DNA from: a virus
Virus record (IMG/VR): IMGVR_UViG_3300021061_000099
Location: 1-36,782 of that record
Length of the DNA stretch: 36,782 bases
Reading direction: 5' to 3' (one strand)
A program made the translations under genes and the position numbers. Below the pieces are notes generated by a model that worked only from the letters and a program-made list of their open reading frames with translations, was not told the DNA's origin and ran no database searches. Below, one piece after another: positions 249 to 36,782 of this stretch; the first letter of the stretch is position 1; each line of letters opens with the position of its first letter.

Positions 249-1169
249 TCAAGCCCTCGGGTGACTGGCCCCGAACGTCTGCTCCAGGTGTTTCTGGCTG
301 ACGAGCGTGTAGAGCTGGGTCGTCGCGACGGTCGCATGCCCAAGAGTCTCCTGCACCGCCCGGAGGTCTGCCCCGCCTTCGAGCATGTGCGTTGCCGTCG
401 AATGCCGCAGGCGATGCGGGTAGACCCGTTCCGTGATGCCGACCCGAAGGGCGGCTTGCCGCAGCCGTAGCCGGACGGTGTTGCAGTTCAGCCGCCTGGA
501 TCCGCAGAGCCCAACCCACAGCCAGTCGTCGGACGGCGGGGCCTTGGAGCGGGCCAGGGCTTCCGCGCGCCAGGCCAAGAACGACCGGAGCGCAGCCACC
601 GCCGGCCGGCCGATGATCGAGTACTTGGTCCGGTTGCGCTTGCCGACCGTGAACCGCAGGCGTCCGCGCCCGTCTGGCCGCTCGAGCTCGAGGTCCGAGA
701 CCCTGAGATTCAGGACCGCCGTATGCCGCTGCCCGCTGGCGTAGAACACCTCCCAGAGCGCACGGAACAGCGGGTGCGGCTCAGCTTCGATCAGCTCGCG
801 CGTCTGGCTCTCCTGAAGCGGGTTCGGCAGAGGCGCTTCGGCCTGCACCGGCTCCATGGCGTCGAACGGATCGTGCCACACGTAGCGCTTCCGGCGAAGC
901 CAGCGATACCACCGCCGCAGGATCGAGGTATGCCCGCGAATCGTCCAGCCCTTGAGATTTTTTACCGTGCTGGCGTGGACGATGTACGCGTCGACGTCGT
1001 CGTAGTCGGCCTCCGCGTAGGTCTTGCCGCGAGTGGCCAGAAAAGCGCACCACTCGCGTGCCACACGCGGATAGTGGCGACACGTCGATTCCTTCTTCCC
1101 GTACGCCCGGAGGTACTTCGCCCACTCGATGATGAGGTGGGCAACTGCCGCACCGGTGGCAGATCCCAA
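249..1169 (-). CDS. int: Tyrosine-type site-specific recombinase (phage integrase)
   Basis: A 306-residue protein of the usual XerC/XerD-like length and layout. An N-terminal SAM-like core-binding domain covers roughly residues 10-105 and a catalytic domain roughly 115-295. The catalytic set is visible: Arg148, a Lys near 177-182, His252-x-x-Arg255-His256, His278 in LGHAT and the nucleophile Tyr287. It would integrate the circular phage genome into the host chromosome or excise it. The start used is TTG at 1169, because no ATG lies near; a purine-rich GGCGGGA lies about 10 bases upstream. It is transcribed toward the non-coding junction, where the candidate attP lies. This is the complete recombinase of the two in the window. 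Confidence 0.92.
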   Translation of the reverse strand: MGSATGAAVAHLIIEWAKYLRAYGKKESTCRHYPRVAREWCAFLATRGKTYAEADYDDVDAYIVHASTVKNLKGWTIRGHTSILRRWYRWLRRKRYVWHDPFDAMEPVQAEAPLPNPLQESQTRELIEAEPHPLFRALWEVFYASGQRHTAVLNLRVSDLELERPDGRGRLRFTVGKRNRTKYSIIGRPAVAALRSFLAWRAEALARSKAPPSDDWLWVGLCGSRRLNCNTVRLRLRQAALRVGITERVYPHRLRHSTATHMLEGGADLRAVQETLGHATVATTQLYTLVSQKHLEQTFGASHPRA

Positions 1170-1312: not shown

Positions 1313-1343
1313 TTGACACATTTGCATGCGCAGGGCATCCTAT
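1313..1343 (+). promoter_or_regulatory. Rightward early promoter (perfect -35, weak -10)
   Basis: A perfect TTGACA lies at 1313-1318, preceded by a T-rich stretch resembling an UP element. The -10 is weak: CATCCT at 1336-1341 with 17-bp spacing, or TCCTAT at 1338-1343 with 19-bp spacing. Transcription would start near 1348, at the edge of the first inverted repeat. The poor -10 suggests dependence on an activator, or that the start differs. Confidence 0.45.
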
Positions 1344-1346
1344 GGG

Positions 1347-1458
1347 CGTGACACACGCACGGTTGACGGACTTGAACCCAGCGGCCCCCACCACCCCGAG
1401 TCGGTGCGTGTGTCACGACTCTGCATTCGGCACGGGAATGGTGGGCACCGCTGGGTTC
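1347..1458 (+). ncRNA. Structured leader: two interleaved inverted repeats (pseudoknot order)
   Basis: Arm A (1347-1360) pairs perfectly over 14 bp with A' (1404-1417). Arm B (1374-1397) pairs with B' (1435-1458) at 20 of 24 positions, including 11 and 7 uninterrupted pairs. The order is A-B-A'-B', so the two stems can form together only as a pseudoknot, or else compete as a two-state switch. The element begins where the upstream promoter is expected to start RNA synthesis and leads into the gene at 1566. No known riboswitch family is recognised. Confidence 0.5.
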
Positions 1459-1493
1459 GTTTCGGCAGGCTCCGCCCGCACCCTCTAGCAGTC

Positions 1494-1525
1494 ACTTCAG
1501 CGGCATTTTCTTTTTGCCGCTGAGT
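1494..1525 (+). other. Hairpin with a T-rich loop in the early leader
   Basis: CAGCGGCA (1498-1505) pairs with TGCCGCTG (1515-1522). The stem extends by three or four pairs past one bulged T, and the loop is almost all T. The T run is in the loop rather than after the stem, so this is not a standard terminator on either strand. It may be a protein- or RNA-binding site in the leader. Confidence 0.45.
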
Positions 1526-1545
1526 GGTGCAGGGGTGACGAGCGG

Positions 1546-1565
1546 AGCCGCCTTGGGAGGCGGCT
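1546..1565 (+). promoter_or_regulatory. Hairpin masking the ribosome binding site of the first early gene
   Basis: AGCCGCC (1546-1552) pairs with GGCGGCT (1559-1565). The Shine-Dalgarno-like GGGAGG (1555-1560) lies in the loop and the start of the 3' arm, and ATG follows at once at 1566. This arrangement can limit ribosome access and so regulate translation. The architecture is visible in the sequence; the regulatory role is inferred. Confidence 0.5.
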
Positions 1566-1898
1566 ATGGCGTACCGCGAAATCGCGGGCCTGCGGCTCGG
1601 CAGGAACACCCTGGAGCCCATCCGGGAGACGGAGATCCGGTCTTGGGTCGACAAGGGGCCGTACGGCCCGGTTGAGGACTGGAAGGGCTGGATCGAGGTC
1701 GACGTCCTTCCGCGCTGCATCCTGTCGGATGAGCTCAAGCTGGACGTCGCTAAGCGCCTTGCAACGGAGGCGCTCCCGCATTCCTTCGAAGTCGATCACG
1801 ACGGCTGGAAGATCGAGCGTCCCAATCAGTTCGTCATCCGCCTGCGCCCCTATCACTGGACCGAGTCGCGCGGGCTGGGGTTTGAGGTGGTGCGGTAA
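1566..1898 (+). CDS. Hypothetical early protein
   Basis: A 110-residue soluble protein with no recognised domain and no transmembrane segment or signal peptide. It is first in the rightward early transcript, just after the structured leader, so its synthesis is the most likely target of any leader control. The ribosome site is inside the hairpin ending at 1565. Its stop overlaps the next start (TAATG), implying translational coupling to the HNH-type gene. Confidence 0.7.
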   Translation: MAYREIAGLRLGRNTLEPIRETEIRSWVDKGPYGPVEDWKGWIEVDVLPRCILSDELKLDVAKRLATEALPHSFEVDHDGWKIERPNQFVIRLRPYHWTESRGLGFEVVR

Positions 1899-5722: not shown

Positions 5723-6499
5723 ATGCAAGGCGCATGGAATCTGCCAGAGCACAAGATGATGGCGACGGAGGAACGTCGAGCCATTATCGAGGTCGCAAAG
5801 ACGCGGGACCCGTTTCTTTACCCCCTGCTGGTGACAGGGGCTAACACGGGCCTGCGCTGCTGCGAGCTCATCCACATCCGCTGCGAAGATGTGCTTGGGA
5901 AGGGCAAGCTGCGGGTGACGCGGCGCAAGAAGAAGGTCTTGCAGCCGGAAGTCATGGGCATCCTGCCGGACCTGGAAAAGATCCTGATGGGGATCAAGGA
6001 ACAGCGGCCGAATGGATGGCTGTTCCCTGGGGGCGCCGGGGCCTGCGTGCTGGAGCGCCGGCCGCAGTTCAAGAAGCTGGTCTGCCCTGACTGCAACAAG
6101 CAGATAGCGGACCCGTCGCTCTACAAGAAGTCAGCCGACCTTAAGCGCCTCTTCTTCGCTCACCTCACCCAGGAACACAGACGAGACGCTATGGACGTCT
6201 CCATGTGGATGGAGTTTGAGAGCGAATCGACGAAGGAGACGCTTTGCGGCGGCGGCCACATCAGCAAGCGGGACGTGCAGTACCGATGGACGCTGATTCT
6301 CGCTGAGGCAAAGCTGCGGATGCCTGGAAGGGGCATCCACAGCCTGCGGCACGGGTTCGCCATCGACTTCTACAACAAGACGAAGGATCTGCGAGCCACG
6401 CAGATGGCACTCGGCCACTCATCGCCCGTCGTCACGCAGAAGTATGCCAACGTGCTCGACATGGACGAGAAGCTTAGAAAGATGGAGCCGCTGATCTAA
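5723..6499 (+). CDS. Second tyrosine recombinase, catalytic domain only, with inserted C2H2 zinc finger
   Basis: A 258-residue protein that begins almost directly at the catalytic domain of tyrosine recombinases. Conserved residues are Arg45 in NTGLR, His206-x-x-Arg209-His210 in HSLRHG, His232 in LGHSS and the nucleophile Tyr241. Between the first Arg and the HxxRH block lies an insertion of about 60 residues with Cys121-x2-Cys124 and His147-x4-His152, a C2H2-like zinc finger. The N-terminal core-binding domain of ordinary integrases is missing, and no open frame upstream supplies it. Possible roles are inversion, resolution or DNA-end processing. The start (TGATG context) follows GAGGAG. Confidence 0.8.
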   Translation: MQGAWNLPEHKMMATEERRAIIEVAKTRDPFLYPLLVTGANTGLRCCELIHIRCEDVLGKGKLRVTRRKKKVLQPEVMGILPDLEKILMGIKEQRPNGWLFPGGAGACVLERRPQFKKLVCPDCNKQIADPSLYKKSADLKRLFFAHLTQEHRRDAMDVSMWMEFESESTKETLCGGGHISKRDVQYRWTLILAEAKLRMPGRGIHSLRHGFAIDFYNKTKDLRATQMALGHSSPVVTQKYANVLDMDEKLRKMEPLI

Positions 6500-6660: not shown

Positions 6661-6689
6661 CCGCCCGAAGTGTACCACGGATTATTTTC

Positions 6690-6748
6690 TCATGCCATGA
6701 TTTTTTCTGTTGACACTTCTCATGCCATGAGATATTCTCATGGCATGA
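6690..6748. promoter_or_regulatory. Three operator-like 11-bp sites TCATGSCATGA
   Basis: TCATGCCATGA occurs at 6690-6700 and 6720-6730, and its reverse complement TCATGGCATGA at 6738-6748. Each is a near-perfect dyad, so a dimeric regulator is likely. The second copy fills the spacer between -35 and -10 and the third covers the predicted transcription start. Binding there would block RNA polymerase. The local AT-rich composition contrasts with the flanks. Confidence 0.75.
6710..6738 (+). promoter_or_regulatory. Rightward sigma70-type promoter
   Basis: TTGACA at 6710-6715 is separated by exactly 17 bp from TATTCT at 6733-6738. It is the best consensus promoter in the window. The expected start is near 6745, inside the third operator copy. 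It would drive the run of small genes from 6793 to 13577. Confidence 0.8.
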
Positions 6749-11704: not shown

Positions 11705-11707
11705 CGG

Positions 11708-11769
11708 CTGGCCAGGGGGCATCGAGGCTGGGGAAGCGTCCCTACCCCGAGGAGGATCCCCCTGGCCAG
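11708..11769 (+). repeat. 12-bp perfect inverted repeat before a ribosome site
   Basis: CTGGCCAGGGGG (11708-11719) and CCCCCTGGCCAG (11758-11769) are exact reverse complements around a 38-base loop that itself holds GGGG and CCCC tracts. The second arm ends about 20 bases before the GGAGGGG ribosome site of the gene at 11800. It may be an RNA control hairpin or the trace of an inserted element. Confidence 0.65.
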
Positions 11770-11799
11770 CACGGTCTAAGGATAGCCCGGAGGGGAGCG

Positions 11800-36381: not shown

Positions 36382-36392
36382 CACGCGGCGGG

Positions 36393-36420
36393 ACTCTACC
36401 CCGGCCAGAAAGCTTGTCAA
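36393..36420 (-). promoter_or_regulatory. Leftward late promoter
   Basis: On the minus strand TTGACA (36420-36415) and TAGAGT (36398-36393) are separated by 16 bp. Both features (16-bp spacer, -10 of the form TAGnnT) are shared with the internal promoter at 29737-29764. It should drive the chain of overlapping genes from 36381 through terminase and portal. Confidence 0.6.
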
Positions 36421-36769: not shown

Positions 36770-36782
36770 GGGAGGTAAGGAG
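36770..36782. repeat. 13-bp terminal direct repeat, right copy
   Basis: Identical to positions 1-13 and supports circular closure. After joining, the purine tract runs from about 36767 through position 49 with only a few T. Confidence 0.75.

What the first reader, a model, noticed from the sequence alone, without database searches (positions are those of the whole stretch)
1347..1565. Leader RNA with interleaved stems (A-B-A'-B') and a ribosome-site hairpin
Seen in the sequence: a perfect 14-bp inverted repeat (1347-1360 with 1404-1417) is interleaved with a 20-of-24 inverted repeat (1374-1397 with 1435-1458). A T-loop hairpin (1494-1525) and a hairpin holding the ribosome site (1546-1565) follow, directly before the first early gene. 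The first arm begins about where the upstream TTGACA promoter should start RNA. Inference: this is a pseudoknot or two-state regulatory RNA controlling entry into the early genes, possibly the lysis-lysogeny switch. It matches no riboswitch class I recognise. If it instead acts as DNA, it may be a complex operator or recombination site.
Basis: partly seen in the sequence, partly recalled or inferred. Interest (0 to 1): 0.78.

Follow-up and report, generated by a model that had tools for sequence, protein, structure and literature searches.

The report
Conserved two-state leader RNA in phages
The front end of this phage's early transcript encodes a folded, switch-like RNA that a second, otherwise unrelated phage has kept with matching paired changes, so it is a real and apparently undescribed regulatory RNA whose exact job is still unproven.

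Summary
In detail: the 14-bp and 20-of-24 interleaved inverted repeats, T-loop hairpin and ribosome-site hairpin are present and beyond chance. I found one homologue in IMG/VR (L005, 45.4-kb phage) with the same order: divergent integrase, TTGAC promoter, arm A starting at the predicted +1, B, A', B', long hairpin, RBS hairpin, start codon. The two phages share no detectable proteins except two ~34%-identical tyrosine recombinases. Between the leaders, arm B carries 7 compensatory pair changes and arm A 2; sliding the partners destroys the signal. Differences fall equally on codon positions, so it is not evolving as coding sequence. No Rfam family matches. In both phages A:A' is the best fold early in the growing chain, then B:B' wins; in both, the conserved UUUC after B' pairs the Shine-Dalgarno in the A state and is captured in the B state. 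Best reading: a co-transcriptional two-state (possibly pseudoknotted) cis-regulatory RNA gating the early operon. Put-like antitermination, CI-like antisense immunity, and a DNA operator in arm A remain open. Only two members, unknown host, no bench data.

The parts
1313..1341 (+). early promoter: TTGACA (1313-1318), 17-nt spacer, CATCCT (1336-1341); predicted +1 at G1348
   Evidence: sequence; same geometry in L005: TTGACT 571-576, 16-nt spacer, CATAAT 593-598, then 6 nt to GTGACACACGC
1347..1360 (+). arm A, 5' end of the transcript; core GCGTGACACACGC is itself a dyad
   Evidence: 14-mer GGCGTGACACACGC identical in L005
1367..1370 (+). helix E 5' strand (CGGA), pairs 1461-1464 in the B state
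   Evidence: MFE of both leaders; one C-G to A-U and one G-U to A-U change in L005
1374..1397 (+). arm B
   Evidence: 20 of 24 pairs with 1435-1458; 7 compensatory changes against L005
1404..1417 (+). arm A', in the apical loop region of the B:B' hairpin
1421..1431 (+). conserved segment between A' and B' (CTGCMTTCGGC)
   Evidence: alignments A1/A4
1435..1458 (+). arm B'
1460..1463 (+). UUUC: pairs the Shine-Dalgarno when A:A' is formed, pairs helix E when B:B' is formed (predicted)
   Evidence: constrained partition functions, same in L005
   Evidence: L005 has a shorter hairpin in the same place, 726-767
1546..1565 (+). RBS hairpin; its first 4 nt overlap the 3' arm of hairpin C (as in L005)
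1555..1560 (+). Shine-Dalgarno GGGAGG
   Evidence: sequence
1566..1898 (+). first early gene, 110 aa, no family; not homologous to the first gene of the L005 phage
249..1169 (-). tyrosine recombinase Int1, divergent neighbour; 33% identical homologue in the same place in the L005 phage
5723..6499 (+). second tyrosine recombinase Int2, in the early operon in both phages (34%)

Best explanation
A conserved structured RNA occupies the first ~220 nt of the early-operon transcript. SHOWN by comparison of two phages: arms A:A' and B:B' pair, in interleaved order, followed by hairpin C, an RBS hairpin and the start codon. INFERRED: it is a co-transcriptional two-state cis switch. A:A' forms first (best fold from ~nt 64-70 to ~97-106) and traps the 5' end; in that state the UUUC after B' can pair the Shine-Dalgarno and hold the first early gene closed. 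When B' has been made, B:B' displaces A:A' (or adds a pseudoknot to it), helix E captures UUUC and the Shine-Dalgarno is freed. A trans-acting factor or RNA, or the speed of transcription, would set how long the A state lasts, and so when the early genes are entered.
For: Homologue with the same layout. Nine compensatory pair changes; 0-2 when partners are slid; 21 of 24 B pairs in L005, reached by 2 of 200,000 shuffles. Same nested MFE shape, z -7.3 and -5.4. Same order of folding along the growing chain. Same A-state/B-state choice for UUUC and SD: SD unpaired 0.34-0.41 against 0.52-0.55 (window), 0.28-0.31 against 0.67-0.83 (L005). Non-coding by codon position, 13/13/13. Conserved 4-nt overlap of hairpin C and RBS hairpin.
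Against: Only two members. The first genes differ in the two phages, which argues against control of one particular protein. The UUUC:SD pairing is pyrimidine with purine and easy to get by chance. The B state is about 8-18 kcal/mol better than the A state, so something must hold the A state if it is to matter. Start site, transcript and host are unknown. Nearest-neighbour energies at 37 C may not suit the host.
Confidence: 0.42

Rival explanations
1. Put-like antitermination RNA: the nascent leader binds RNA polymerase and lets it read through terminators of the ~13-kb early operon.
For: It starts at the first transcribed base of an early promoter, as putL lies just downstream of PL in HK022 (PMC9378689). 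It is conserved while the first gene is not. It contains conserved sequence between the arms (CTGCMTTCGGC).
Against: One copy per genome, none before the late genes, whereas HK022 has putL and putR. put itself was not aligned here. The conserved RBS hairpin and SD/UUUC logic is not needed for it.
Confidence: 0.2
2. Antisense immunity RNA like P4 CI / P1 c4: the B:B' hairpin is released or made as a small RNA whose apical loop (A') pairs with arm A at the 5' end of newly made early transcripts and shuts them down.
For: A' sits in the apical loop of a strong hairpin, and its target A lies upstream in the same leader, as seqA lies upstream of CI in P4 (PMC4825925). A:A' is -23 to -27 kcal/mol as a duplex.
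Against: No second target (seqC-like) downstream: duplex energy of the A' loop with downstream RNA is no better than shuffled. No evidence of processing. A is nearly identical in the two phages, so they would be cross-immune. No match to an Rfam family.
Confidence: 0.17
3. DNA operator: GCGTG-ACA-CACGC at the start site and its inverted copy A' (and GTGACAAACGC at 1261) bind a repressor; A:A' complementarity is a by-product of two inverted operators, and only B:B' is RNA.
For: All three exact GTGACAMACGC copies in the window lie within 1261-1416. A lies across the predicted +1 and its core is identical in both phages.
Against: The A pairing extends 2 bp past the dyad in both phages, with both base pairs compensated. 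A' weakens its own dyad in L005 but keeps pairing with A. There is no third copy in the L005 phage, nor copies at other promoters. No repressor identified among window proteins scanned.
Confidence: 0.15
4. DNA recombination or inversion site for Int1/Int2, the only proteins the two phages share.
For: Shared occurrence of leader, Int1 and Int2. Inverted copies of a crossover site would also co-vary.
Against: B and B' are imperfect copies with mismatches at partly the same places; the element is placed exactly between promoter and start codon; hairpin C and the RBS hairpin belong to it; phage genes lie on both sides in both genomes.
Confidence: 0.04
5. Leaderless leader peptide: translation starts at GUG = +1 (46 codons in the window, 40 in L005) and attenuates by melting the arms.
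For: Frame 0 from the predicted +1 is open in both leaders.
Against: Differences fall 13/13/13 on codon positions, and codon usage scores are negative in every frame while real genes are positive. An open frame this short is common at 65% GC.
Confidence: 0.05

Closest known systems
HK022 put RNA (antitermination), PMC9378689
   Same: cis-acting folded RNA near the 5' end of a phage early transcript; the RNA itself is the conserved part
   Different: put is ~70 nt, two stem-loops, present twice (putL, putR); here ~110 nt of interleaved arms plus a further hairpin and RBS hairpin, one copy per genome
P4 CI RNA / seqA and IsrK of Gifsy-1 (PMC4825925); P1/P7 c4 RNA (PMC12197685)
   Same: phage leader with complementary stretches, one in a hairpin loop; in IsrK two alternative structures decide RBS access
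   Different: no downstream second target found, no evidence of a separate small RNA, no covariance-model match
type I toxin mRNA leaders with metastable or pseudoknotted 5' UTRs (timP, tisB; PMC11295053)
   Same: structure formed during transcription masks the SD; slow refolding or a pseudoknot governs initiation
   Different: those guard small toxin genes with an antisense partner; here the gene is the first of a phage early operon
lambda N leader with RNase III site (own knowledge, not tested)
   Same: ~220-nt early leader with a long hairpin upstream of the RBS
   Different: no nut site recognised here; interleaved arms are not described in lambda

Membership tests
any Rfam family (riboswitches and described phage RNAs included) | covariance-model score above the gathering cutoff | tested here: not met
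   none at gathering threshold over the window; only generic hairpin-type sub-threshold matches for window and L005
HK022 put | located near the 5' end of an early transcript | tested here: met
   arm A begins at the predicted +1 in both phages; +1 is inferred
HK022 put | two adjacent stem-loops of ~70 nt in all | tested here: not met
   interleaved A-B-A'-B' of ~110 nt
HK022 put | terminator read-through with the host polymerase | not testable with these tools
   needs in vitro transcription
P4 CI / c4 antisense immunity RNA | loop complementary to a target in the same leader | tested here: met
   A' with A
P4 CI / c4 antisense immunity RNA | second complementary target downstream (seqC or RBS region) | tested here: not met
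   duplex energy no better than shuffled sequence
P4 CI / c4 antisense immunity RNA | processed stable small RNA | not testable with these tools
   needs northern blot or RNA-seq
pseudoknotted or two-state cis-regulatory leader (general kind) | interleaved helices kept by compensatory change | tested here: met
   (two sequences only)
pseudoknotted or two-state cis-regulatory leader (general kind) | states differ in RBS access | tested here: inconclusive
   predicted in both phages, not measured
DNA operator | copies at other regulated promoters of the same phage | tested here: not met
   exact copies only around this promoter in either phage

The most novel reading that the evidence does not exclude
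A new class of phage RNA: a pseudoknotted 5'-terminal element that travels with a two-recombinase module between otherwise unrelated phages and times entry into the early operon by co-transcriptional refolding without a dedicated protein.
Probability: 0.25. Interest if true: 0.8.

Novelty: new variant of a known kind. Interest (0 to 1): 0.58.

Why it matters
Phage early operons are usually described as governed by repressors and antiterminator proteins; control by RNA alone at their first nucleotides is known in only a few phages. Here the RNA is kept between phages whose structural genes are unrelated, so it is likely a central control element, and the natural compensatory changes suggest ready-made tests.

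Tried and rejected
Protein relatives of ORF1566, Int1, Mgm101-like and TerL in IMG/VR, phages, plasmids and genomes: no close kin with a leader. Arm-A pattern loosened to 18 bases: five further records, all other sequence without B arms. Conserved A'-TTCGG pattern in 84,980 genomes: 15 hits, none with arm A, so chance. Covariance model R1 in three phylum draws of ~345 genomes (the sets overlap): nothing, with reduced sensitivity. Int2 profile in ~885 genomes of three phyla: nothing. Second copy of the element in either phage: none (only antisense self-matches). Intrinsic terminator formed by B:B': U tract weak in the window (sequence). Coding reading: rejected. tRNA, Rfam: none.

Full report
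WHAT WAS CHECKED. The 14-bp perfect repeat 1347-1360/1404-1417 is the longest perfect inverted repeat within 200 bp in the whole window, and none of 1000 dinucleotide shuffles of the local region reached it. The second repeat pairs at 20 of 24 positions. The leader as a whole folds far better than shuffled sequence (z -7.6). The T-loop hairpin is the tip of a longer hairpin, 1468-1549.

THE HOMOLOGUE. A scan of IMG/VR with both arms A (GTGACACACGC N30-58 GCGTGTGTCAC) returned one other virus, IMGVR_UViG_3300037851_000418 (L005, 45,410 bp). A looser 18-base pattern returned only that virus as a true relative, and a pattern from the A'-loop segment again returned only it. Its layout is the same: a tyrosine recombinase on the other strand, TTGACT-N16-CATAAT, six bases, then GTGACACACGCGA, B, TCGCGTGTGTCAC, a segment CTGCCTTCGGC, B', a hairpin, an RBS hairpin, and the start codon GTG. 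In the window the promoter is TTGACA-N17-CATCCT, again six bases before GTGACACACGC. The predicted first nucleotide is therefore the first base of the shared part of arm A in both phages. This +1 is inferred from promoter spacing, not mapped.

COVARIATION. On the alignment of the two leaders arm A has 11 invariant pairs and 2 compensatory ones, and arm B has 7 compensatory changes, 1 one-sided G-U change and 11 invariant pairs. Sliding the partners by 1-3 columns leaves 0-2 double changes instead of 9. In L005 alone, 21 of 24 B positions pair; 2 of 200,000 shuffles did as well. A further short helix E (1367-1370 with 1461-1464) appears in both MFE structures with one C-G to A-U replacement. 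These changes are what selection on base pairing leaves. The differences are spread 13/13/13 over codon positions and no frame has the codon usage of these phages, so the region is not evolving as coding sequence. Frame 0 does open with GUG at the predicted +1 in both.

CONTEXT. The two phages share only two proteins detectable by BLASTP among all ORFs of 60 aa or more: Int1 (33%) and Int2 (34%). Their terminase and portal types differ, and so do their first early genes. Both early operons carry recombination genes: Mgm101-like in the window, an exonuclease in the other. The leader is thus conserved apart from the gene it precedes, which points to a function for the operon rather than for one protein.

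HOW IT MAY WORK. Folding of growing chains gives the same course in both phages: A:A' is complete and optimal from about nt 70 to 94 (window) or 76 to 106 (L005), after which B:B' takes over. With A:A' imposed, the UUUC just after B' pairs with the Shine-Dalgarno, and the SD's unpaired probability falls from 0.52-0.55 to 0.34-0.41 (window) and from 0.67-0.83 to 0.28-0.31 (L005). With B:B' imposed, UUUC is held by helix E. In both phages the 3' arm of hairpin C overlaps the RBS hairpin by 4 nt, so these two also compete. A pseudoknot holding both A:A' and B:B' sums to -60.4 and -58.5 kcal/mol before any knot penalty, against -57.0 and -49.9 for the nested folds. The 13- and 16-nt linkers look just long enough to span the B helix (inference). 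Computation cannot decide between a knot and two states. The translational gate is my best inference, not a result.

RIVALS. Put-like antitermination fits the position and the independence from the first gene, but the RNA is single-copy and of another shape (PMC9378689). A CI/c4-like antisense RNA fits A' in a loop and A upstream (PMC4825925; PMC12197685), but no second target was found. An operator in arm A fits the dyad and the third copy at 1261, but not the compensated pairs beyond the dyad. Leaders of type I toxin mRNAs show that 5'-terminal metastable or pseudoknotted structures can time translation (PMC11295053).

LIMITS. Two sequences, no host, no transcript data. No Rfam family applies.

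Noticed in passing
1-13 and 36770-36782: The record's ends share the 13-bp direct repeat GGGAGGTAAGGAG, suggesting a complete circle or cohesive ends although the record is classed linear.
   Followed up: partly
6687-6748: Copies of the palindrome-like TCATGCCATGA around a TTGACA-N17-TATTCT promoter, between a small zinc-finger ORF (-) and a small ORF (+): looks like a repressor operator region.
   Followed up: no
1261-1271: Third exact copy of GTGACAMACGC, upstream of the early promoter and outside the transcript; absent from the L005 phage.
   Followed up: partly
249-1169 and 5723-6499: Two tyrosine recombinases; both have counterparts in the same relative places in the otherwise unrelated L005 phage. 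Int2 of the window carries an insert with Cys/His residues.
   Followed up: partly
36390-36420 (-): Likely late promoter TTGACA-N16-TAGAGT upstream of the leftward late genes.
   Followed up: no
11707-11770: 13-bp perfect inverted repeat (11707-11719/11758-11770) inside the early operon; equal second longest in the window with 6720-6748.
   Followed up: no
L003: A 5.3-kb contig of another IMG/VR record encodes a TerL fragment 100% identical in protein to the window's.
   Followed up: no
L008:5803-6198: XRE-type HTH regulator in the early operon of the L005 phage; no HTH protein was recognised among the window proteins scanned.
   Followed up: partly
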